From Syntrophomonadaceae bacterium (GTDB lineage Bacteria; Bacillota; Syntrophomonadia; Syntrophomonadales; Syntrophomonadaceae), in NCBI GenBank assembly GCA_012511795.1, contig JAAZFJ010000084.1, positions 1 to 35,843 of the forward strand: a stretch of DNA of 35,843 nucleotides. The letters are read 5' to 3'. Below the pieces are notes generated by a model. That model made no database searches. It saw nothing but the letters and a program-made list of their open reading frames with translations, and was not told where the DNA came from. Position numbers and translations under genes: made by a program. Numbering within the stretch: the stretch's first letter is position 1; every line of letters starts with the position of its first letter. This document shows, one piece after another, positions 164 to 22,686 of the stretch.

Positions 164-192
164 AGGCGGGATTTCATCTTCCCGCCTCTTTT
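164..192. terminator. Bidirectional terminator of tRNA-Pro and integrase
   Basis: An 8-bp stem (164-171 with 180-187, AGGCGGGA/TCCCGCCT) with an 8-nt loop is followed on the plus strand by CTTTT and on the minus strand by TTTT. The integrase stop codon (174-176) sits in the loop. It lies on the phage side of the core, so the prophage supplies the host tRNA with a new terminator. The displaced host terminator is at 34237-34270. Confidence 0.8.
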
Positions 193-1484
193 GCTTTTCT
201 GACCATATTTTTTGGTTTGTTAGTAATTCTGTTAGTAATTGTGTACCGCTTTGGTTTTTTGAGCAGCGCATTTCCCATTTTAGCAGCTGCAGCTTTTTCC
301 CTTTCACGATCTGAATGCAGGTAAATGGTAGTCGTGGCAATGACGGAATGCCCCATATTATTACTTACAACTGATAAGTCTGTCCCCAAGGCTACTGCAG
401 AGGTTGCATAAGTGTGGCGTAAGCCGTGAACAGTTAGTTTTTCGAAACCATGCTTTTTCAGCAGTCGCTGCAGGTGCCGGTATAAATGATCTGGTGAATA
501 CCATCTGCCATCCGGCCAGCAAAACACCAAGTCTTCACCCTGGGGATCCTTCCTTGATTTAATTGCTACTACTTTTGAATCTGTTGGTTTTTCCGTAATC
601 CCTGTGAGCTTTTGTTTTTGCTCCCATTGCTGCTGTTTATGCTTTTTTAATATAGCGATCAACTCCGGGGGTAACTGCAGTTCCCGGTAGCCAGTGTCAG
701 TTTTAACCCGTTCAACAAGTTTGCATTCTCCCGATGTCTTACGGATCAACTGGCGCCTAACTATAACAGTGCCCTTTTTATTAAGGTCAAAATCCTTCCA
801 TTTCACCCCCAGCAGTTCGCCGCGCCGCAATCCTATCATTAAGTCAGTGACAATCGCCGGATACATATAGTCATCTTTAATAGCCTCAAGGAACGCTGCC
901 GCATCATCAACAGTCATATGCTTAATTTTTGGCTTTGGGATCTTAGGCAGGTTGATCAATTTCTTTGCGGCTGGATTGGAGATTATTAATTCTTGTTCTA
1001 CTGCTTTATCCAATGCCTGGCGCAATATTCCGTAGGAACGAGCTACTGTTTTAGGAGCGAGGCCGCCCTTTCCGTCCCTGCGGCCGCTTTTACTAAGTTT
1101 ATTAACCCATTGCTGCACATCCAGAGGTCTTAAGTCTGGGAGCAGAATACTACCTATATGAGGCTTGATCCTTAATTCAATTTCATTTTCATAGGATTCC
1201 CAGCCGGTTTCCTCAAGATCGGACACCTTATAATTATTCATCCAGAAATCCATCCATTCACTGACAGTCAGTTTATTCTTTTTGGGAAGAAAGCCGTTCT
1301 GGGTCAGTGTGGCCAGGGCTTCATCTTTTTTCCGGACAGCTTCCTCAGCATCCTTTGCAGTAAAATACCTGGGCTTTGTCTCTCCCCGAAAAGTGATCGC
1401 ATAGCACCAGCGGCCATCGCTGAGCTGGTACAATGATCCTTCGCCGTTAACCCGGCGGCCTCGGGACTTTTTCTTTCGCGGCAT
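174..1484 (-). CDS. int: Tyrosine-recombinase integrase
   Basis: This 436-residue integrase catalyses recombination between attP and the tRNA-Pro attB. Visible parts are an N-terminal arm-binding region (about 14-60), a core-binding SAM-like domain (about 70-175) and the catalytic domain with R220 (GLRRGEL), K261, H353-x-x-R356 (HGLRH), H379 (MGHS) and Tyr388 (TIYLH). I start at the ATG at 1484, preceded by GAGGTGAT; the frame is open further upstream without a better site. The C-terminal stretch ITNRITN is encoded by the tandem repeat at 219-241, which also looks like an arm-type site. The gene points into the tRNA, as is common for tRNA-integrating phages. Confidence 0.96.
   Translation of the reverse strand: MPRKKKSRGRRVNGEGSLYQLSDGRWCYAITFRGETKPRYFTAKDAEEAVRKKDEALATLTQNGFLPKKNKLTVSEWMDFWMNNYKVSDLEETGWESYENEIELRIKPHIGSILLPDLRPLDVQQWVNKLSKSGRRDGKGGLAPKTVARSYGILRQALDKAVEQELIISNPAAKKLINLPKIPKPKIKHMTVDDAAAFLEAIKDDYMYPAIVTDLMIGLRRGELLGVKWKDFDLNKKGTVIVRRQLIRKTSGECKLVERVKTDTGYRELQLPPELIAILKKHKQQQWEQKQKLTGITEKPTDSKVVAIKSRKDPQGEDLVFCWPDGRWYSPDHLYRHLQRLLKKHGFEKLTVHGLRHTYATSAVALGTDLSVVSNNMGHSVIATTTIYLHSDREREKAAAAKMGNALLKKPKRYTITNRITNKPKNMVRKAKEAGR
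219..241. repeat. Putative integrase arm-type sites, left arm
   Basis: Two copies of GTTAGTAATT occur here at a 12-bp step (219-229 and 231-241), inside the 3' end of the integrase gene and about 70 bp from the attL core. The same sequence occurs twice in tandem at 34015-34036 near attR, in the same orientation. Paired short repeats on both sides of a core are what arm-binding sites of tyrosine integrases look like. Binding itself is inferred. Confidence 0.7.
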
Positions 1485-1494
1485 AGATATCACC

Positions 1495-2277
1495 TCATTC
1501 CGATTCAAAAAAAATTGCAACTTTAACAACATATTTATCATCGTCATCTTCTTCCAAGAGCTCTATAAAAGCCGGGTGTTCATTTTCCAGATATTTTTCT
1601 GCCGATTTAGGGAAATAACCTATTTCACCACCGCATATAGCAACATACTTTTCTTTGTCATAGTCAAACTCATATTCAACTTCCTCTTCTTCATCACAGT
1701 AGGATAGTGTATCCTGCATGTCTTCTTTGCGATTGCCGGTTAATTTGAAAACTTTATAAGGTTCTCCAGACGAAATTAGCTTGCTATATTCACTTTGTTC
1801 TCTTTTCTCTTTATAAAAACCGATTGAAAATTGAACCGTATCAGTCGATTTATCAATATCAGAAATAAAAGATTGAATAGGATCGCCCCTTCTCAGAAAA
1901 TCGAGGACCATATCCTGCATACTGCCTCTATATAAATAGCCTATATTAGTATCACCGGTTTTTACTATAACAGCTTTGGGATCATAAGGATTTGAAGGCT
2001 CCGGTATAAAACAAATAGGCATATAGGGTTTAAGTTTATCGTAATCGGGCTTATTATCTCTGATTATACATACCTTTATATTTGCATAGTTATAAGCCAG
2101 AGGAAACCCGTTAAGCTCTTGCGGTAAAACTTTAGGTGTTACTTCAAGCAATTCTTCCCGTTCAGGCACTGGCGGTGCCTCAGTAACTTTGTTAATATCA
2201 GCAGCAGACACGTTCATTAGATTTTTACTGACCGGCTGGGATTGCGGGATGCCAAACAATAGTTTTATGAAACGCAT
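1495..2277 (-). CDS. HIRAN-domain protein
   Basis: A 260-residue protein. Residues about 90-118 contain the HIRAN signature (EPSNPYDPKAVIV, then a short turn and IGYLYRG). A weaker, similar half (KYVAICGGEIGYFPKS, about 208-226) suggests a second, degenerate copy, with an acidic linker between. HIRAN domains in other proteins bind DNA ends or damaged DNA; here the domain stands alone with no helicase or nuclease part. The start ATG at 2277 follows AGGGGGG. The gene lies between integrase and the repressor/protease pair on the same strand, so it is probably made in the lysogen. Its job is unknown; a repair or defence accessory role is possible. Confidence 0.75.
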   Translation of the reverse strand: MRFIKLLFGIPQSQPVSKNLMNVSAADINKVTEAPPVPEREELLEVTPKVLPQELNGFPLAYNYANIKVCIIRDNKPDYDKLKPYMPICFIPEPSNPYDPKAVIVKTGDTNIGYLYRGSMQDMVLDFLRRGDPIQSFISDIDKSTDTVQFSIGFYKEKREQSEYSKLISSGEPYKVFKLTGNRKEDMQDTLSYCDEEEEVEYEFDYDKEKYVAICGGEIGYFPKSAEKYLENEHPAFIELLEEDDDDKYVVKVAIFFESE

Positions 2278-13330: not shown

Positions 13331-13879
13331 ATGAATTTTGTTCAGCCGATCAGGGATAAAGAGACGGTCCAAGATATTGCAGAATTTTATAAAGCTAAAT
13401 GTGAACGTAACTTTATCATGTGGATGCTGGGCATTTACTCAGGATTGCGGGTATCGGACATATTGCCGCTGCGAGTAAGAGATGTATATAAGAGGCCGTA
13501 TATTAAACTGCGCGAAATGAAAACCGGCAAAATGAAGCGATTTGAAATAAATCCAATACTGGCCCGGGCATTAAATAGATATTGTGAAGGACGGCCGCTG
13601 GATGAATATCTTATTAAAAGCAGAGAAGGAAGAAATAAACCAATTACTCGTAGCATGGCCTATAAGATCCTGCAGGAAGCAGCTGACCATTTTGGCCTCG
13701 ATAGTATTGGGACGCATTCAATGAGAAAGACCTTCGGCTACCACTTCTATCTCCAGACTAAAGACGTGGTAACACTGATGAAGATCTTTAATCATAGCAA
13801 CCAGCTCATCACATTAAGATACATAGGCATCGAAGAGGAGCAAGTTAATGAAGCAATTAAGAAGTTTAAAATTTTTTAA
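13331..13879 (+). CDS. Second tyrosine recombinase, catalytic domain only
   Basis: A 182-residue protein consisting essentially of the catalytic domain: R40 (SGLRVSD), K64, H129-x-x-R132 (THSMRKTF), H155 (NHSN) and nucleophile Y164 (LRYIG). All key residues are present, so it should be active. It lacks the N-terminal core-binding domain. Similar short recombinases are found just before the terminase in many Firmicute phages, where their role is unclear; resolving genome dimers or recombination at the packaging region are possibilities. The ATG at 13331 follows TTAGGAGTGAACAGTA. Confidence 0.9.
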   Translation: MNFVQPIRDKETVQDIAEFYKAKCERNFIMWMLGIYSGLRVSDILPLRVRDVYKRPYIKLREMKTGKMKRFEINPILARALNRYCEGRPLDEYLIKSREGRNKPITRSMAYKILQEAADHFGLDSIGTHSMRKTFGYHFYLQTKDVVTLMKIFNHSNQLITLRYIGIEEEQVNEAIKKFKIF

Positions 13880-14223
13880 TTGAGTTATCCATATTAATTA
13901 GTTGTATAATCCGAAAACGCTTTATCTTTATAAGCCTCATGTAGCGGTCTTTTAAGTATATGTAATGAGTTCAACACAATATTAAATAAGGATAACTCAT
14001 AAGACTATATAAAAAGCGGTCGAAACCTAGTAAATATCATGGTTTTAACGATTGCTTTTTAAATCTGTTTGTGATTGCCATAAAAAGGAAGGGAAAGGCG
14101 GCAAAAATAGCGGTCACTTCTGAATTGTTTCAACTCAATTATTTCGCAAATCGTGTGATAAATCTTAGATTTTTATATATGAATAAGACGAAAATAAATC
14201 TTATTTTTAACGGGGTTGGTAAA
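13880..14223. promoter_or_regulatory. Early/late junction with inverted repeats
   Basis: This 344-bp gene-free stretch separates the second recombinase from the packaging genes. It holds a long-spaced inverted repeat (TGAGTTATCC at 13881-13890 and GGATAACTCA at 13990-13999, extending imperfectly to about 18 bp), a possible promoter TTGAGT (13880-13885) with TATAAT (13905-13910, 19-nt spacer), and three direct copies of AGCGGTC (13943, 14015, 14109). It is the natural place for the late promoter and/or the recombinase target. Confidence 0.5.
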
Positions 14224-15006
14224 GTGGGTAGGAAAAAAAGTCCTAACCGGGAAGCAGCCTTCAATCTTTTTAAAGAAAGCGGGGGGAAGTTAAGCTCTGC
14301 TGAGATTGCAGACCAGTTAGGAGAAAAGATCAATAACATTAATACATGGCGCCATAAAGACAATTGGAAAGATAAAGTGGGGAAAGTCGGGGCGCCATTT
14401 GAAAATCAAAACGCAGTGGGCAACAAAGGGGGAGCACCTGAGAAGAACCAAAACCGAACGATCCACGGCCTGTATTCTAAGTATTTCCCGAAGGCATCCG
14501 TGGATATTATGAAAGAGACTGAAGGCCTGGGTCCAATTGATATACTTTGGATGCAGATCCACATGAAGTTTGCGGCCATTATTCGTGCTCAAAAGATCAT
14601 GCACGTCAAGAACCAGAAGGATATGACTAAGGAAGTTAAACGGGTAAAACGGGAATATGATGTCAAAAACAATGGAACGAGAGATGAACCTAGTTTTGAA
14701 AACATCCTAACTTATGATGAAATAGAATACGAAATCCAGTACGCCTGGGATAAACAGGCGACTTTTTTAAAGGCTCAGTCCCAGGCCATGGCCCAGCTGA
14801 CCAACATGATCAAGCGATATGATGAGATGCTCCATAAGAACTGGGATATGGTCACCGAAGAACAGAAGCTCCGGATTGAAAGCATTAAGCAGCAGATCGA
14901 GAATCCTGATCTGGATTATAAGAAGCAGCTTAACAGTGAGAAAATGAAGCTATCCAGGGAAAGGTTTGAACATCAGAAGAAGATGGATGAGCTGAAAAAC
15001 TTTTGA
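14224..15006 (+). CDS. Terminase small subunit-like protein (YqaS/XtmA type N-terminus)
   Basis: A 260-residue protein. The N-terminus (VGRKKSPNREAAFNLFKESG, then SSAEIADQLGEKINNINTWR) is the HTH domain of PBSX-type small terminases, followed by the NAVGNKGGAPEKNQNRTIHG segment usual in that family. A coiled-coil C-terminus follows (about 180-260). The GTG at 14224 aligns with the family's start; its ribosome site (GGGGTTGGT) is weak, and the frame is open upstream. It would bind the phage packaging site. A second small-terminase candidate lies at 16045. Confidence 0.82.
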   Translation: MGRKKSPNREAAFNLFKESGGKLSSAEIADQLGEKINNINTWRHKDNWKDKVGKVGAPFENQNAVGNKGGAPEKNQNRTIHGLYSKYFPKASVDIMKETEGLGPIDILWMQIHMKFAAIIRAQKIMHVKNQKDMTKEVKRVKREYDVKNNGTRDEPSFENILTYDEIEYEIQYAWDKQATFLKAQSQAMAQLTNMIKRYDEMLHKNWDMVTEEQKLRIESIKQQIENPDLDYKKQLNSEKMKLSRERFEHQKKMDELKNF

Positions 15007-15036
15007 TTAAAAACTTCCAAACGCTTGGAGATTATT

Positions 15037-15693
15037 ATGGATATACTGCATAGTTTCTACTGTAGGAAGCCCTGGCTCGACTTATCTTTTAATTTAAAGA
15101 TAGCAGCAAAAGGAAAATGCCAAAGGTGCGGGACAACTGTCAAAGATATTAAATATTTGATTGGTCATCACAAAATAGAACTGACCGAAGAAAATGTTAA
15201 TGACCCAAGCATAGCTCTTAATCCTGTACATATCGAAATAATATGCCTTGATTGTCATAACAAAGAGCATCGACGCTTCGGCGGCAAGAAGCAGGTCTAT
15301 ATTGTTTACGGAAGTCCGCTGTCTGGGAAGAATACCGCGGTTAGGGAAATGATGCAGTATGGCGATATCGTCCTGGATATAGATGCACTCTGGCAGGCGG
15401 TCACATTTCAGCCGGCATACATAAAACCAGACAATTGTAAATTCAACCTTTTTAAATTACGGGATGAGATGCTGGACCAGATCAAGACACGATACGGGAA
15501 CTGGTACGATGCTTATATTATCGGCGGCTATCCGGAGAAGTACGAGCGTGAGAGACTGGCCCAGATGTTAGGTGCAGAGATGATTTATTGCGAAAGCACC
15601 AGAGAAGAATGCCTTACAAGGCTTCATAATAGTGGAAGACCAAAAGCCTGGGAGAATTATATTAATGATTGGTGGGATAAGTTTAATGATTAA
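15037..15693 (+). CDS. HNH endonuclease fused to a P-loop kinase-like domain
   Basis: A 218-residue two-domain protein. Residues about 20-82 are an HNH nuclease with a zinc cage (C28-QR-C31, GHHKIEL with H44/H45, C70-LD-C73-HNKEH). Residues about 85-218 are a P-loop NTPase: Walker A GSPLSGKNT (92-100), an acidic LDIDALW motif after it, and a kinase-like layout. HNH proteins next to terminases assist cos cleavage in HK97-type phages. The kinase-like half may act on nucleic-acid ends. The ATG at 15037 follows TTGGAG. Confidence 0.82.
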   Translation: MDILHSFYCRKPWLDLSFNLKIAAKGKCQRCGTTVKDIKYLIGHHKIELTEENVNDPSIALNPVHIEIICLDCHNKEHRRFGGKKQVYIVYGSPLSGKNTAVREMMQYGDIVLDIDALWQAVTFQPAYIKPDNCKFNLFKLRDEMLDQIKTRYGNWYDAYIIGGYPEKYERERLAQMLGAEMIYCESTREECLTRLHNSGRPKAWENYINDWWDKFND

Positions 15694-16044: not shown

Positions 16045-16368
16045 GTGGAAAATCAAGAGATAGTGGACGAAATTGCCCGTCTTAAGGCTGAATTTGCCGG
16101 GGCGGATGAGAATAAAATGAAAGTCCTGGAGGCCTTGATTGAGCAGGCGGCCTATGAGCGGCTTTATTTAAAACGGTTGAATGAGCAGGCCCTGGTTACC
16201 GGCCTGGTTAAAATACACCCTGAGAATGCTATGCTGCAGAAGACGTTACCGATCGCGGGGGTGATTGCCAAGCATTCGGCAGCGCTTACAAATATCATGG
16301 ACAAGCTGATGAAGCACCTGGCGGTAGAGTCGGATGATGAGGACGATGGCCTTGATGAATACGCATAG
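16045..16368 (+). CDS. Terminase small subunit, P27-like
   Basis: A 107-residue helical acidic protein directly before, and overlapping, the large terminase, which is the position of the P27-type small terminase. The motif VTGLVKIHPENAMLQKTLPI resembles the central P27 segment (a Gly-Leu-Val turn, then Asn-Pro-like and helix), and the tail is very acidic. The GTG at 16045 follows AGGTGAT; a TTG at 16003 in frame is less convincing. Assignment rests mainly on position. Confidence 0.65.
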   Translation: MENQEIVDEIARLKAEFAGADENKMKVLEALIEQAAYERLYLKRLNEQALVTGLVKIHPENAMLQKTLPIAGVIAKHSAALTNIMDKLMKHLAVESDDEDDGLDEYA

Positions 16369-18046
16369 TTATCTGATTGAGTATTATGAAAAATGCAAGG
16401 CGGGAAAGATCCTGATCGGCAAGGAACTGATGACGATGCTGGAAATCCTGATGGCAGATATGGAGGATCCGGCCTATCGTTTCGATCCAGCTGAGGCCCA
16501 TAAGCGGATCACGTTCATTGAGAAAGAATGCAAGCATAGTATTTCTCCTTTTGCCGGGCATCCTTTTCTTTTAGAAATAAATCAGAAGGCGCTCAGGGAA
16601 GCGATATACGGCTTTTATATGAACATTGAGGGAAGATGGCTGAGGCGCTTCACTGAAGTCTTATATATGGTAGGAAGGAAAAACGGGAAGACGACTGAAG
16701 TGGCAGGGGACGGCAATGCTGAATTCTTCTGCGGGAACATGGGCACCAACATTCTTTGCGCTTCCAATGACTATGAACAGGCAGGGCTGGTATTTGATGA
16801 GATCAATAATATGCGGGAGGAAAGCCCCAAGTTGGTTAAAGTCAGCCGAAAAACCATCAAAGGTATTTTCATGGGCAACCCGAAGCAGAAGAAAAAGAAA
16901 GGTAAATTCAGCCGGCAGAATAAGGCCAAGATCAAGAAGCTATCGGCCAAGACCGGAGCTAAAGAAGGAAAGAATGTAGATGTTGCCTTTGTGGATGAAG
17001 TCCATGAAATGAAAGATGACAGCCTGGTCCGTCCGATCAAGCAATCGATGTCAACAAAAGATGAACCTTTATATTGGGAAATAACCACTGAGGGTTTCAC
17101 TGAAGACGGGTACCTGGATAAAAGGCTGGCTGATGCCAGGCGGGTCTTAAAGGGAGAGCTTCACCGGCCCCGGTGGCTAATCTGGCTTTACACCCAGGAC
17201 AGTGAGGAGGAGATCTGGCAGAACCGGGACAGCTGGGTGAAGTCAAATCCCAACCTGGGGGTGGCTAAAAAGTGGCACTACCTGGACGGCCTGATCGAGG
17301 AAGCGAAAACTGACAGCGGTACCCGGGCCTTTATGCTGGCCAAGGATTTTAATATTAAACAATCCAATGCGCAGGCCTGGCTGCAGCAGGCTGAAATTAT
17401 AAACCTAGAGACCTTCGACATTAAAGATTTTGCCGGAGGTTTTTATATTTCGGGCAATGACTTTGCGGAGACTACTGACTTATGCGCCAGCGATCTGCTG
17501 CTGAAAAAACCAAATGATAAGCGGGTTTATTTTTATTCTCGGTATTGGATTCCGGAAAGTAAATTGATAAATGCTCCGGATGATGCAGACTATCGCGGGT
17601 GGGAGCGCGCGGGACTCTTGACGATCGTACCGGGGAACGCAGTGGAAAGTTCGATGGTTGCTGATTGGCACTATGAATTATTAAAAGAATACGATCTGAA
17701 ACCATTTAAAAGCGGTTATGATAACCGATTCGCCAAGGATTTTCAGAACAGATATATAGAGGTATTCGGGGATAAAATAGCAATCAATATTCCCCAGGAA
17801 CCAAAAGTATTAAACAATCCTATGAGGACCCTGGAGGCTGATCTCAGAGATAAGCTGGTCATATATAACAACAATCCTGTAAGCTTCTGGTGCTTATGCA
17901 ATACCGGCATAAAGCTGGATAACCTGGGGCGGATTATGCCGTGCAAGATGCATGCAACTAAACGTATTGACGGTACCGCATCCAAAGTTATAGCTTACGC
18001 AACTCTGGAATGGTACCGGTCAGAATTTATGAGCTTAATCGGATAG
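16346..18046 (+). CDS. terL: Terminase large subunit (HK97 type)
   Basis: About 566 residues, the normal length. ATPase: Walker A VGRKNGKTT (109-117), Walker B VDVAFVDE (211-218). A Lys-rich stretch (about 179-210, with KQKKKKGKFSRQNKAK) precedes Walker B. Nuclease domain: SGNDFAETTDLCA (first catalytic Asp) and later conserved blocks to the C-terminus. It powers DNA packaging and cuts concatemers. The start is uncertain: ATG 16346 or 16355 (ribosome site GAGG at 16339-16342); both overlap the small-subunit gene. Confidence 0.95.
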   Translation: MALMNTHSYLIEYYEKCKAGKILIGKELMTMLEILMADMEDPAYRFDPAEAHKRITFIEKECKHSISPFAGHPFLLEINQKALREAIYGFYMNIEGRWLRRFTEVLYMVGRKNGKTTEVAGDGNAEFFCGNMGTNILCASNDYEQAGLVFDEINNMREESPKLVKVSRKTIKGIFMGNPKQKKKKGKFSRQNKAKIKKLSAKTGAKEGKNVDVAFVDEVHEMKDDSLVRPIKQSMSTKDEPLYWEITTEGFTEDGYLDKRLADARRVLKGELHRPRWLIWLYTQDSEEEIWQNRDSWVKSNPNLGVAKKWHYLDGLIEEAKTDSGTRAFMLAKDFNIKQSNAQAWLQQAEIINLETFDIKDFAGGFYISGNDFAETTDLCASDLLLKKPNDKRVYFYSRYWIPESKLINAPDDADYRGWERAGLLTIVPGNAVESSMVADWHYELLKEYDLKPFKSGYDNRFAKDFQNRYIEVFGDKIAINIPQEPKVLNNPMRTLEADLRDKLVIYNNNPVSFWCLCNTGIKLDNLGRIMPCKMHATKRIDGTASKVIAYATLEWYRSEFMSLIG

Positions 18047-18061: not shown

Positions 18062-19783
18062 ATGATAGTTCTAGATTATTTAAAAAATGTTTTTAAAGGG
18101 ATAGGGCAAGAGCGTCAGTATAGAAAATGGCTGATGAATGGTGTGCCGCTATTTACGAGTTTTGGGAAGGATATCTACTTATCTGATTATGTTAATAATG
18201 CCATTGACCGGATAGCCAGCGAGATCAGTAAGATAGAGTTAAAAAGTATTGTGCAGAACGGGGATGTGCTTAAGGTCCAGAATGATGATATAACCAGGCT
18301 GTTTCGTTTTAAACCTAACCCGCTGCAGACGACCAGCGATTTCTTTTCCAGTGTGGAGTGGCTGCGGCGAAAATATTGCAATGCTTTTATTTATCCGCAG
18401 TATCAGATTATATCTTTACCGGATGGGCGGCAGTTTAGAAAGTATATAGCGTTTTATCCGCTCAAGCCCCAGGCAGTTTATATCGGTGAGAATAATGGGG
18501 CGGTGTGGGAGATCCGCATGGACTTTGAGGATGGAAGTAGTTATACATTGCCTTATGCGGACTTGATTCATCTGCGCTGGCGCCGCGGGGCTAATACGAT
18601 AATAGGCGGCGGGGATGATTATGGGGGCGTTAATAATTATGATGTGCTCCGCACCATTGATGCTCTGGATAAGACCATCCAGGGGTTGCCGAAAAGTATT
18701 GAGGCCAGTCTGCAGATCAAAGGTGTTTACCATGCCAAGACATTAGCTGAGGCTCAAAAGCTGGCTGCCATCCGGGACGATTTTGAGAGTCATATTACGA
18801 CCAGCAAAAGCGGCATAGTGGCAACGGACCTGGCCGGCGAATTTACACCGGTAAATATAAACGCTCCGGAAATCCCGGACGCTGCTTTAAAATTCCTTAA
18901 GTCTGTGATCCAGGAGCGTTATGGTGTGTCGGCGGCTATATTATCCGGAGATTATAACGGCGATCAGCATAGTGCATTTTATCAGACTGCTATCGAGGAT
19001 TTTATAGTGCAATTTGAACAGGCCTTTACGGCCTGTGTGTTTACTGCCCGGGAGCAGGATGTAGGGCACCGGGTCAAGGGTTATTACAGTAAAATCAACT
19101 ATATGGCTACACAGGACAAGATCCAGCTGGCCAATATCGCCAAGGAAACCGGCATCATGATGCTCAATGAAATTAATGAGATGTTCGGGATTCCACCTTT
19201 TGAGGGCGGTAACCGGCGGCTGCAGAGCCTGAACTATGTCAATATCGAGGACGTGGATGCCTACCAGAAGGGAAAGGCCGGGGTAGGCGATAGTAAGCCA
19301 AAGAAGGAAGACGATGAGGAAGAGGAAGGCCGGGCGTTGAATATACGGTTTTCATTAGAATCAAGCCCCCTTTCCGGCGTGGATATTAGGGCAGATAAAA
19401 AAGACCTGGATAAGGTAAAGCAGATAATCAAGGCCTTATCCAAGGGGGAAAGGAAAGAACTGGGCCCCAGGTATTTCTATGACGACGCACAATACAGAAA
19501 GGTCCTTGAAGAAGACGATGAATTGATTGGTTTTATTGAAAATAGGGCTACAGGTAAGAAGGGTCATTTTAATTTAGCTATTCACCCCGATTATAGAGGA
19601 AAAGGATATGCTGAGAAAATCGTCAAAAAGGCCGTAAAAGACGCGGGTAAGCTAGACCTGGATAAAATCTATTGGATAACTTCATCAGGCAATAAGGCAT
19701 CCCGGGCGTTGGCAGAAAAAATGGGATTTGTTTTGAAGAAGGAAGACGATGATGAAGTCAGGTATGTTTACGAATTGGATTAA
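18062..19783 (+). CDS. HK97-type portal protein with C-terminal GNAT acetyltransferase domain
   Basis: A 573-residue protein. Residues 1 to about 400 are an ordinary HK97-family portal (LSDYVNNAIDRIASEISKIE, the LRWRRG and SAAILSGDYNG regions, NEINEMFGIPPFEGG). After an acidic Lys/Glu linker (about 405-424) comes a second domain (about 440-573) with GNAT hallmarks: FNLAIHPDYRGKGYAEKIV (503-521, acetyl-CoA-binding R-x-x-G-x-A/G type loop at 512-517) and NKASRALAEKMGF (544-556). The frame is continuous. The fused domain would sit at the portal vertex in about 12 copies. The ATG at 18062 follows GGGGAGAAGGTG. Confidence 0.9.
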   Translation: MIVLDYLKNVFKGIGQERQYRKWLMNGVPLFTSFGKDIYLSDYVNNAIDRIASEISKIELKSIVQNGDVLKVQNDDITRLFRFKPNPLQTTSDFFSSVEWLRRKYCNAFIYPQYQIISLPDGRQFRKYIAFYPLKPQAVYIGENNGAVWEIRMDFEDGSSYTLPYADLIHLRWRRGANTIIGGGDDYGGVNNYDVLRTIDALDKTIQGLPKSIEASLQIKGVYHAKTLAEAQKLAAIRDDFESHITTSKSGIVATDLAGEFTPVNINAPEIPDAALKFLKSVIQERYGVSAAILSGDYNGDQHSAFYQTAIEDFIVQFEQAFTACVFTAREQDVGHRVKGYYSKINYMATQDKIQLANIAKETGIMMLNEINEMFGIPPFEGGNRRLQSLNYVNIEDVDAYQKGKAGVGDSKPKKEDDEEEEGRALNIRFSLESSPLSGVDIRADKKDLDKVKQIIKALSKGERKELGPRYFYDDAQYRKVLEEDDELIGFIENRATGKKGHFNLAIHPDYRGKGYAEKIVKKAVKDAGKLDLDKIYWITSSGNKASRALAEKMGFVLKKEDDDEVRYVYELD

Positions 19784-19800: not shown

Positions 19801-20397
19801 ATGAAAAATAAGGCGGAACGCCGGCTGATCGAAGTCAGAGCGGTCAAAAATGATGATGGAAAAATGCTGGTGGAGGGCTATGCTATTACATATGAAACGC
19901 CGGCCACGCATCAGATTGGTAGCAGGAAATTTACTGAAACCATCAAACGGGGAGCCCTGGACAAAACGGATATGAAGGATGTGCCCCTACGGTACAACCA
20001 TAATGACAACGTGATGATCATGGCCAGGACCCGCAACAAGTCGCTTAGGCTCATAAAGGATGAAAAGGGTTTGAAAATCGAGGCGGAGCTCCTGGACACT
20101 CAGAGCAACCGCGATTTATATAAAGGGATCCAAGAGGGGCTCATCGATAAGATGAGCTTTGCTTTTAGGGTAGCTGATCAAGGAGACACCTGGATTTTCG
20201 GGGAAAAGGAGACGACCCGGGAAGTCAATGACATTGAAAGATTGTGCGACGTATCGGTGGTGGATACCCCGTTTTACGACAGTACATCTATATATGCCCG
20301 CAGCCTGGAACTGCTGGACAGCGAGGAACGGCGGCTGGAGAGCCTGCGGGAGATTACACTGATCAAAGAAAGAATTATTATGAAAGGAAAGGTTTAA
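19801..20397 (+). CDS. HK97-family prohead protease
   Basis: A 198-residue serine protease that trims the capsid protein during head maturation. H67 (LRYNHND) and S119 (DKMSFAF) are the catalytic His and Ser of the family, with DVSVVDTPFYDSTSI near the C-terminus. The ATG at 19801 follows AAGGAGGATAAGGAGG. Order portal, protease, capsid protein is the standard HK97 arrangement. Confidence 0.95.
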   Translation: MKNKAERRLIEVRAVKNDDGKMLVEGYAITYETPATHQIGSRKFTETIKRGALDKTDMKDVPLRYNHNDNVMIMARTRNKSLRLIKDEKGLKIEAELLDTQSNRDLYKGIQEGLIDKMSFAFRVADQGDTWIFGEKETTREVNDIERLCDVSVVDTPFYDSTSIYARSLELLDSEERRLESLREITLIKERIIMKGKV

Positions 20398-20401
20398 AAC
20401 C

Positions 20402-21661
20402 ATGAAGAAAAAATTAATGGCTTTGCTGGCCAAAAAGGAAGAGCGTAAAACCGCTATCATGGCCAAAGCGGAAGCATCCAACGATGTGGCTGAATTAAGA
20501 GCACTAAATACTGAGCTGGACGGCCTCAATGAAGAGATCCGCAGCTTAAAGGAAATGATTGCGGGTATGCCTGATGATGCTGCTGCCGGTGATCCTGCAG
20601 CTGATGATCCTGATCAGCGTACTGCTGCTGTTACCGGCCAGATTCCGGGAGTGGTAACTGCCGGAGCAAAAGGCCAGGAGCAAAGAGGGGCAGAGGTCAC
20701 TGATAAATTCAGCACTGTGGAATACCGCACTGCGTTTAAGGATTACTGTCTGAGAGGGACGCCGATCCCCGAGGAATACCGCGACGATGCGTTTACTGCG
20801 GTTGCTGATGCGGCTGCTGTGATCCCGACCACGATCATGACTGAGATCGTCAAGGAGATGAAGGTCAGAGGCCAGCTTTACAGCCGGGTCCGGAAGACGA
20901 ACATTCCCGCTGGTGTACAGGTGCCGATCCTGTCCCTGAAGCCGACGGCTTCCAGGATCACCGAGGCTGCTGTATCTGCGCGGCAAAAGCTGCAGGCTAA
21001 TACCTACATCAGTTTCTCCTACTATGGCCTGGAATGCAAGGTGGCCACTTCTCTCTTGACATCAGCTGTTTCCCTGCCGGCTTTCGAAGCGGAGATCGTG
21101 CCGCTGATCGTTGAAGCAATGGTAACCCAGTGCGAGATCGAGGTCATCAAGGGCACCGGTGAAGGTCAAATGCTGGGTGTTACAGTTGATACCCGGGTTG
21201 CTGCCGGGCAGAAAATCACCCTTACAGCGGATGAAATATCAGACTGGGGCGCATGGAAGAAAAAGGTCTTTGCCAAAATTCCGCTGGCTTATAAGGCGGG
21301 GGGAATATTCGTTATGGGTGCGGGCACCTTTGACGGCTATATCGACGGGATGCAGGACGCCAACGGGCAGCCGATCGGCCGGGTGAACTACGGTATCGCT
21401 GATGCTCCGCAGTACCGGTTTGGCGGCAAAGAAGTGCTGGAAGTCGAGGAAGATGTGATCGAATCCTATGATTCCGCCAACGCCGGTGAGGTCATTGCTG
21501 TGTTTATGAAACCTTCGGATTTCTGCGTCAACAGCAACATGCAGATGGCCATGTACAGATGGCTTGACCACGACACCAATCAGTGGGTTGATAAGGCGAT
21601 CCTGATCAATGACGGGAAGCTGATCGATGCAGCGGGTGTCCTGATCATTAAGAAAGGGTAA
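20402..21661 (+). CDS. Major capsid protein (HK97 fold)
   Basis: A 419-residue protein. Residues 1 to about 110 are the charged, coiled-coil delta (scaffold) domain, expected to be removed by the protease. The rest is the HK97-type capsid domain (AVIPTTIMTEIVKEMKVRGQ, then LYSRVRKTNIPAGVQVPI, and SDFCVNSNMQMAMYRWLDHD). A GC-rich hairpin follows the stop. It shows the codon bias (GC-rich third positions) of a highly expressed gene compared with the small flanking genes. Confidence 0.96.
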   Translation: MKKKLMALLAKKEERKTAIMAKAEASNDVAELRALNTELDGLNEEIRSLKEMIAGMPDDAAAGDPAADDPDQRTAAVTGQIPGVVTAGAKGQEQRGAEVTDKFSTVEYRTAFKDYCLRGTPIPEEYRDDAFTAVADAAAVIPTTIMTEIVKEMKVRGQLYSRVRKTNIPAGVQVPILSLKPTASRITEAAVSARQKLQANTYISFSYYGLECKVATSLLTSAVSLPAFEAEIVPLIVEAMVTQCEIEVIKGTGEGQMLGVTVDTRVAAGQKITLTADEISDWGAWKKKVFAKIPLAYKAGGIFVMGAGTFDGYIDGMQDANGQPIGRVNYGIADAPQYRFGGKEVLEVEEDVIESYDSANAGEVIAVFMKPSDFCVNSNMQMAMYRWLDHDTNQWVDKAILINDGKLIDAAGVLIIKKG

Positions 21662-21720: not shown

Positions 21721-22686
21721 ATGCCTAATTTTTATCCATATAACCCAAAATTGGGGCAGAGAATCCAGACAGACGCCAAAGGAACAAGTATAGACAGGGC
21801 TTTTGGCGCTCACTATCACATCGATGCGGAAGATGCGCCGGCGGCCAGCTCTGATGGAGTGCATGCGGCCATGGCCTTGGGGGCTGCAGAGCAGTCGATC
21901 ACCACTGGGATCACCAATCCGGCGGTGCCGAGAAACATCCGGATTGATGGGAACGTGTCCGGGATTGATGGAGTAGTAAAAATCACCGGGACCAACTTTG
22001 CGGGTGAAGCGATAACGGAGGACATAACCGCCAATGGTACTACTGCAAAAGATGGGAACCTGGCATTTAAGACCGTGACCAAGATCGACCTGCCGATCCA
22101 GGATCATGTGCCAAGGGCTCAGGTTGAGACAGCCACGGCAGCTGGCACTGTAACAACTGCGGGGAATGCCGCGGTAACGGTAAAATCAGCGCTTTTTGCG
22201 GAAGATGAAGTCGTTGATGTACCGGTGGAACTCAATGATGATGCGGCGGCAATTGCTCTGGCAATACGGACTGCCCTGGCAGCAAATGAAATCATTGCAG
22301 AACATTTTGACGTTTCCGGAGAAGATGCAGCTGTAGTTTTGACTGCGAAGGTTGCGGACGCTAATGATGATACGCTAAACATCGCTATTGATGACGGAAC
22401 CGGAGAAGGGGCATCCGAAGGGGTAACGACTGCAGCAACATCAGCCAACACCACCGGTGGCGTTGGCGTTGGCTCTGACCAAATCAGTGTGGGCTGGGGG
22501 GATAAATTCGGGATCCCGTACAAGCTGTACGCCGATGAGCTAGTCATCCTTAAATTGTTTGGCAAGGCTGTAGAAGCTACAGAGGGTGTTGTTACCGCTG
22601 ATGCGGAGGATCTGGAGAAAAACGTATATGACCCGAACGCAGGGGCTGACGGAACTAAGGATATCGACCTGTATATTATTGTTTAA
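21721..22686 (+). CDS. Head decoration-like protein with inserted domain
   Basis: A 321-residue protein placed directly after the capsid gene. Residues about 1-134 (NIRIDGNVSGIDGVVKITGT, then KTVTKIDLP) and about 250-321 (SVGWGDKFGIPYKLYAD, then KDIDLYIIV) read as one beta-rich decoration-type protein. Between them (about 135-249) lies a Thr/Ala-rich domain (TATAAGTVTTAGNAAVTVKS, then DVPVELNDDAAAIALAIRTA and DDTLNIAIDDGTGEG) of a kind found in phage surface and tail proteins, which looks like an insertion. Probably a capsid surface protein. The ATG at 21721 follows AAGGAGG. Confidence 0.7.
   Translation: MPNFYPYNPKLGQRIQTDAKGTSIDRAFGAHYHIDAEDAPAASSDGVHAAMALGAAEQSITTGITNPAVPRNIRIDGNVSGIDGVVKITGTNFAGEAITEDITANGTTAKDGNLAFKTVTKIDLPIQDHVPRAQVETATAAGTVTTAGNAAVTVKSALFAEDEVVDVPVELNDDAAAIALAIRTALAANEIIAEHFDVSGEDAAVVLTAKVADANDDTLNIAIDDGTGEGASEGVTTAATSANTTGGVGVGSDQISVGWGDKFGIPYKLYADELVILKLFGKAVEATEGVVTADAEDLEKNVYDPNAGADGTKDIDLYIIV

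What the first reader, a model, noticed from the sequence alone, without database searches (positions are those of the whole stretch)
18062..19783. Portal protein fused to a GNAT acetyltransferase domain
The frame is unbroken. An ordinary HK97 portal (about 1-400) is followed by an acidic linker and a domain with both GNAT hallmarks (IHPDYRGKGYAEKIV at 507-521, NKASRALAEKMGF at 544-556). A portal is built into every virion in about 12 copies, so an enzyme attached to it would travel with the particle. It could modify head or tail proteins during assembly or act on host targets on entry. I do not know of a described portal-acetyltransferase with a known role.
Basis: partly seen in the sequence, partly recalled or inferred. 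Interest (0 to 1): 0.82.

Follow-up and report, generated by a model that had tools for sequence, protein, structure and literature searches.

The report
Phage portal protein carrying acetyltransferase tail
A virus of bacteria has welded an acetyltransferase-like enzyme onto the ring protein through which its DNA enters the head, and the same enzyme is found welded onto unrelated ring proteins of other phages, which suggests a swappable add-on tool whose target is still unknown.

Summary
ORF 18062-19783 (573 aa) is a complete HK97-type portal, a 40-residue linker and a GNAT domain (Pfam E 1.2e-14; GNAT fold modelled). A new result comes from relatives. In 2.9 million viral contigs this GNAT subfamily was found in 8 other contigs (7 distinct proteins). 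All are C-terminal to a portal, but the portals belong to lineages with no or barely detectable sequence similarity: lambda-type (PF05136) and three divergent HK97-type groups (PF04860). GNAT domains up to 90% identical sit on portals with no similarity. Portals 76-84% identical to carriers lack the domain and stop where the linker begins. It is a mobile, optional cassette under purifying selection. The acetyl-CoA loop is invariant, but the usual catalytic Glu and Tyr are invariantly His and Ala, so activity is likely, not certain. I favour an effector-type protein acetyltransferase aimed at a host factor, because carriers share neither portal, protease nor terminase type. 'Acts on entry' is not shown: a portal normally stays in the emptied head, so injection needs release from it. 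Portal fusions to other effector domains are published (PMC5512222); I found no description of portal-GNAT. It is a new variant of a known kind.

The parts
18062..19276 (+). HK97-type portal part (aa 1-405), complete; ends where GNAT-less relatives end
   Evidence: PF04860 aa 44-375, E 1.8e-30; 83.6-84.2% identity to L002/L004 over aa 1-412, which stop at 415-416 aa
19277..19402 (+). Linker (aa 406-447), partly acidic, predicted disordered, not conserved among carriers
   Evidence: Sequence; pLDDT 25-35 over aa 391-440; no internal start with a good Shine-Dalgarno in most carriers
19406..19780 (+). GNAT domain core (aa 449-573), SpeG/RimI/Pat-like
   Evidence: PF00583 E 1.2e-14; model and Foldseek; profile search of PDB sequences
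19463..19498 (+). Invariant motif GxRYFYDDxQYR (aa 468-479), substrate-side segment, diagnostic of the subfamily
   Evidence: Alignment of 8 distinct members; DNA pattern found in exactly 8 viral contigs, all portal fusions
19538..19573 (+). Invariant motif ENRxTGKKGHxN (aa 493-504); His502 sits where SpeG and Pat have the Glu of beta4
19595..19612 (+). Acetyl-CoA pyrophosphate loop RGKGYA (aa 512-517), fits the GNAT motif R/Q-x-x-G-x-G/A; R, G, G, A invariant
19691..19729 (+). NKASRALAEKMGF (aa 544-556); Ala551 replaces the usual catalytic Tyr in all members
19801..20397 (+). S78 prohead protease, directly downstream; in every carrier the head protease follows the GNAT
   Evidence: PF04586 E 2.8e-35; neighbours of relatives
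16334..18046 (+). Large terminase, directly upstream
   Evidence: TerL_ATPase and TerL_nuclease
20402..21661 (+). HK97-fold major capsid protein
   Evidence: PF05065 E 7.3e-18

Best explanation
The gene makes a normal dodecameric portal whose C-terminus carries a flexible linker and a small GNAT. SHOWN by sequence: the fusion; the GNAT fold; an intact acetyl-CoA loop; a dedicated GNAT subfamily found only on portals; its occurrence on portals of unrelated lineages and its absence from close relatives of two of those lineages; purifying selection. INFERRED: it is an exchangeable effector cassette that uses the portal as carrier. About 12 copies are made late and anchored at the inner (crown) face of the portal vertex. 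The domain transfers an acyl group from acetyl-CoA to an amine, most likely a lysine of a protein, on a host target that these phages have in common (a host regulator or a defence component). It could act in the producing cell before and during assembly, or in the next cell if a protease frees it. It works like the effector domains of polyvalent and MuF head proteins, not as part of the DNA-packaging machine.
For: Carriers: window, L018, L019 (HK97-type, S78 protease), L021 and L022 (other HK97-type, S14 protease), L015/L016, L017, L020 (lambda-type PF05136, S14 protease). The 26-base motif pattern hits exactly these 8 contigs among 2.9 million. L020 (lambda-type) and L021 (HK97-type) GNATs are 90% identical while their portals have no significant BLAST match; DNA similarity begins at the GNAT and runs into the protease gene. 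The GNAT tree mixes the portal types. Near-identical portals without GNAT: L002 and L004 at 84% to the window; L044 at 76-78% to L020/L017. pN/pS 0.06-0.49 with synonymous sites saturated. A prophage relative of L021's terminase (72%) and one of L020's capsid (69%) lie in the same bacterial family as the window's host. Pat from Sulfolobus is the best whole-domain structural match (TM 0.73/0.80) and also lacks the Tyr. GNATs as phage or MGE effectors have precedents: Rac (PMC7552054) and AcrVA5 (PMC9114340). Portal and MuF fusions to effector domains: PMC5512222.
Against: No substrate, activity or virion incorporation is shown. The usual Glu/Tyr pair is His/Ala in all members, so it could be a binding module. 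The cassette is rare (8 distinct proteins). The host inference rests on two 69-72% matches. A siphophage portal is not normally injected. No conserved cleavage site was looked for beyond inspecting linkers, which differ in sequence.
Confidence: 0.5

Rival explanations
1. Assembly enzyme: the GNAT acetylates the phage's own head or tail proteins (or the portal itself) and controls assembly or packaging.
For: It is tethered at the portal vertex, made with the late genes, and always followed by the head protease gene; in L015, L020 and L021 GNAT and protease DNA are similar together.
Against: Carriers use unrelated portals, two protease families (S78, S14) and different terminases, while the GNAT substrate-side motifs are invariant. 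Closest portal relatives assemble without it (L002, L004, L044).
Confidence: 0.17
2. Polyamine acetyltransferase: a SpeG-like enzyme that acetylates spermidine or other amines held with packaged DNA or in the host cell.
For: SpeG proteins are the best PDB sequence matches (E 5.6e-11 with the family profile), among the best fold matches, and spermidine N1-acetyltransferase is the top NCBIfam model for the first member and matches all 8.
Against: The NCBIfam match is far below its cut-off (35.6 of 218 bits). The SpeG Tyr and beta4 Glu are Ala and His in all members. Sequence matches to SpeG cover only residues 33-136 of the profile, while Pat covers 12-135.
Confidence: 0.13
3. Non-catalytic GNAT: a binding or scaffolding module that uses the fold, perhaps with bound CoA, as an interaction surface or to mask the portal.
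For: Both usual catalytic residues are replaced in every member.
Against: The acetyl-CoA loop and the whole cleft-side motif set are invariant. Pat also lacks the Tyr, so loss of Tyr alone does not abolish activity in the superfamily. GNATs can use other bases.
Confidence: 0.17
4. Assembly error or read-through artefact of a metagenome bin.
For: The window is a contig of a 419-contig assembly.
Against: Same architecture in 8 further contigs; open frames and purifying selection.
Confidence: 0.01

Closest known systems
Polyvalent proteins and portal/MuF fusions of phages (Iyer et al. 2017, PMC5512222)
   Same: Effector-type domain fused to a head protein of the portal-terminase system; portal fusions to PBECR, 2H phosphoesterase and InPase are reported there; GNATs occur in polyvalent proteins.
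   Different: The two GNAT families described there sit beside ART domains in gammaproteobacterial phages or in conjugative elements, not on portals. Here a single GNAT subfamily rides on several unrelated portals. Whether it belongs to either of those two families was not tested.
MuF polymorphic toxins of temperate phages (PMC5576092)
   Same: Head-module carrier with a variable C-terminal enzyme domain in temperate siphophages.
   Different: Carrier is the portal itself; no MuF domain; no immunity gene follows, since the protease gene starts within 20 bases in the window.
SpeG spermidine N-acetyltransferase / RimI / Pat GNATs
   Same: Same fold and best sequence and structure matches.
   Different: Beta4 Glu is His, catalytic Tyr is Ala, beta1 strand not modelled, fused to a portal.
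Rac of phiKMV-like phages (PMC7552054) and AcrVA5 (PMC9114340)
   Same: Phage- or MGE-encoded GNATs that act on host proteins (RNA polymerase alpha subunit; Cas12a).
   Different: Free proteins, not virion-tethered; no homology test made here.
DUF7211-tagged GNATs in L024 and L025
   Same: 31-40% similar GNAT segments encoded in the same head/packaging region.
   Different: Separate small proteins with an N-terminal HHGVKGMKWG tag (PF23847), not portal fusions.

Membership tests
Phage portal protein PF04860 (HK97-type) | Profile match over nearly the whole model, position between terminase and head protease | tested here: met
   E 1.8e-30 over model 3-320 of 321; TerL upstream, S78 protease downstream; portal structures head the Foldseek list of the full model (that model is low-confidence, pLDDT 57)
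GNAT superfamily | Profile match above cut-off and GNAT topology | tested here: met
   PF00583 55 bits against 20.7; model and Foldseek. Beta1 was not modelled.
GNAT superfamily | Acetyl-CoA pyrophosphate loop R/Q-x-x-G-x-G/A | tested here: met
   R512-GK-G515-Y-A517, invariant in 8 distinct members
GNAT superfamily | Acetyltransferase activity | not testable with these tools
   Needs biochemistry; usual Glu and Tyr replaced
SpeG spermidine N-acetyltransferase | Curated equivalog score and catalytic Tyr/Glu | tested here: not met
   35.6 bits against 218; Tyr is Ala and Glu is His in all members
RimI | Curated equivalog score | tested here: not met
   32.5 bits against 86.4
Polyvalent protein (phage type) | Two or more domains, one of effector type, encoded with the portal-terminase packaging genes | tested here: met
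   definition from PMC5512222
Polyvalent protein (phage type) | Packaged and delivered into the host cell | not testable with these tools
   Needs virion mass spectrometry and a translocation assay
MuF polymorphic toxin | MuF domain | tested here: not met
   No MuF match in P0001; genuine portal-MuF fusion seen elsewhere in L035

The most novel reading that the evidence does not exclude
The cassette is a built-in counter-defence: a GNAT tied to the portal so that a host immune receptor which recognises portals (as Avs4-type receptors do; PMC12931631 says Avs1-4 recognise terminase and portal proteins) is acetylated and silenced as it binds. This would explain one enzyme on unrelated portals, its patchy presence, phages that seem to share a host family, and tethering instead of a free enzyme. 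Nothing here tests it directly.
Probability: 0.1. Interest if true: 0.9.

Novelty: new variant of a known kind. Interest (0 to 1): 0.6.

Why it matters
Portals are thought of as among the most constrained parts of a tailed phage. Here a whole enzyme is added to, and apparently exchanged between, portals that share no detectable sequence similarity, without another domain between them. If the enzyme is active, the portal vertex is a fixed-copy, addressable carrier for enzymes, and the target, probably shared by phages of one bacterial family, becomes findable by acetyl-proteomics. It also extends the list of portal-borne effector domains by one that leaves a detectable chemical mark.

Tried and rejected
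Two genome-contig scans found no other member in GTDB species genomes. Searches in the host's family, class and a phylum sample found only the window itself and one weak 183-aa open-frame hit. INPHARED phages and PLSDB plasmids hold only distant SpeG-like GNATs (24-37% identity). A standalone gene with its own start was considered and rejected: no consistent internal start with Shine-Dalgarno. Identity as SpeG or RimI was rejected on score and, for SpeG, on residues. The full-length structure model (pLDDT 57, pTM 0.30) is too weak to place the GNAT relative to the portal, so crown location rests on portal biology (PMC10359639). The dN/dS run used a wrong frame for the window and was replaced. 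A sample of 200 genomes of the phylum gave two portals with long C-terminal extensions: one carries a MuF domain by Pfam (L035) and one looks MuF-like by inspection only (L034); neither is a GNAT.

Full report
What is there. The frame 18062-19783 is open and encodes 573 aa. Pfam finds Phage_portal at 44-375 (E 1.8e-30) and Acetyltransf_1 at 472-556 (E 1.2e-14); PHROGs give portal phrog_12 and acetyltransferase phrog_1249. The gene lies in a temperate siphophage-like prophage: integrase (174-1547, minus strand), replication genes, small terminase, large terminase (16334-18046), the portal-GNAT, S78 protease, HK97-fold capsid, tape measure, holin and amidase. The assembly is a 2.9 Mb bin, and this is its only copy.

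The fold. The GNAT domain alone, with its relatives as alignment, models well (pLDDT 83.8, pTM 0.77) with the order alpha1-alpha2-beta2-beta3-beta4-alpha3-beta5-alpha4-beta6-beta7. The best 50 PDB fold matches are all GNATs. Pat of Sulfolobus has the best whole-domain agreement (TM 0.73 and 0.80); SpeG, RimI and PatZ follow. The full-length model is poor (pLDDT 57) but still retrieves portals and GNATs separately.

Relatives of the portal. Thirteen viral contigs hold portals 69-84% identical to the window's. None has the GNAT; those that reach the portal's end stop near residue 415-426, where the window's linker begins, except L003, which has a different short helical tail. So the portal is complete without the domain.

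Relatives of the GNAT. Eight viral contigs hold it (57-66% identical to the window's), and in all eight it is the C-terminus of a portal. A DNA pattern for the motif YFYDDxQYR, scanned over 2.9 million viral contigs, returns exactly these eight; L015 and L016 are the same phage protein, so with the window there are eight distinct proteins. The portals are lambda-type PF05136 (L015, L017, L020) and three HK97-type PF04860 groups (window/L018/L019; L021; L022). BLAST finds no significant similarity between the lambda-type and HK97-type portals, and 20-24% identity between the HK97-type groups. The GNATs of L020 and L021 are 90% identical, yet one portal is lambda-type and the other HK97-type; DNA similarity starts at the GNAT and runs on into the S14 protease gene. 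A tree of the GNATs mixes portal types (few taxa, several weak branches). A lambda-type portal 76-78% identical to L020/L017, in a genome of the window's bacterial family, ends without the GNAT (L044). The cassette is therefore optional and has moved between unrelated portals.

Selection and expression. Pairwise pN/pS is 0.06-0.49 with saturated synonymous sites, so the domain is maintained. No consistent internal start exists, so it is most likely made only as a fusion.

Active site. R512-GK-G515-Y-A517 fits the acetyl-CoA loop and is invariant. GxRYFYDDxQYR and ENRxTGKKGHxN are invariant. In the alignments to SpeG and Pat, the beta4 Glu is His502 here, and the SpeG Tyr is Ala551; Pat has Gly at the Tyr position. 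That Glu and Tyr are the usual base and acid is general GNAT knowledge. Activity is thus plausible but not certain.

Mechanism. Steps shown: fusion, fold, cofactor loop, exchange, selection. Steps inferred: incorporation in about 12 copies, inside location (the crown faces the capsid interior, PMC10359639; that the C-terminus lies at the crown is general portal knowledge), protein acetylation, host target. The host-target inference rests on the invariance of the substrate-side motifs across phages whose portals, proteases and terminases differ, and on two prophage relatives of carriers (72% and 69%) lying in the same bacterial family as the window's host.

What is known. Portals fused to PBECR, 2H and InPase domains, and GNATs in other polyvalent proteins, were described in PMC5512222. 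MuF head proteins with toxic C-termini are in PMC5576092. Phage or MGE GNATs acting on host proteins include Rac (PMC7552054) and AcrVA5 (PMC9114340). My full-text searches (open-access papers only) found no portal-GNAT description. I file it as a new variant of the polyvalent/head-effector kind, with delivery untested.

Noticed in passing
L024 239-6534; L025 2691-5561: Several neighbouring genes in each of these phages begin with or carry the DUF7211 peptide HHGVKGMKWGxRRYQ (PF23847), including a GNAT; L024 has about five such genes around the terminase. It looks like a shared tag on otherwise unrelated accessory proteins.
   Followed up: partly
L034 1-1920; L035 761-3025: HK97-type portals with long C-terminal extensions: L035 carries a MuF domain (Pfam), L034 ends in a similar Cys-rich MuF-like segment by eye only.
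   Followed up: partly
window 21721-22686: 321-aa protein right after the capsid with no Pfam or PHROG match; homologous by DNA and sequence to genes after the capsid in L018 and L022.
   Followed up: no
window 15025-15693: Gene between small and large terminase with an HNH endonuclease domain, matching a PHROG annotated as terminase small subunit, although 14071-15006 also matches small terminase.
   Followed up: no
window 13331-13879: Second, small tyrosine recombinase just before the packaging genes; L020 has a similar gene in the same place (538-1101).
   Followed up: no
L003 2192-3640: A close portal relative carries a different short C-terminal extension (about 60 aa, predicted helical by eye), so the portal C-terminus varies in more than one way.
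   Followed up: no
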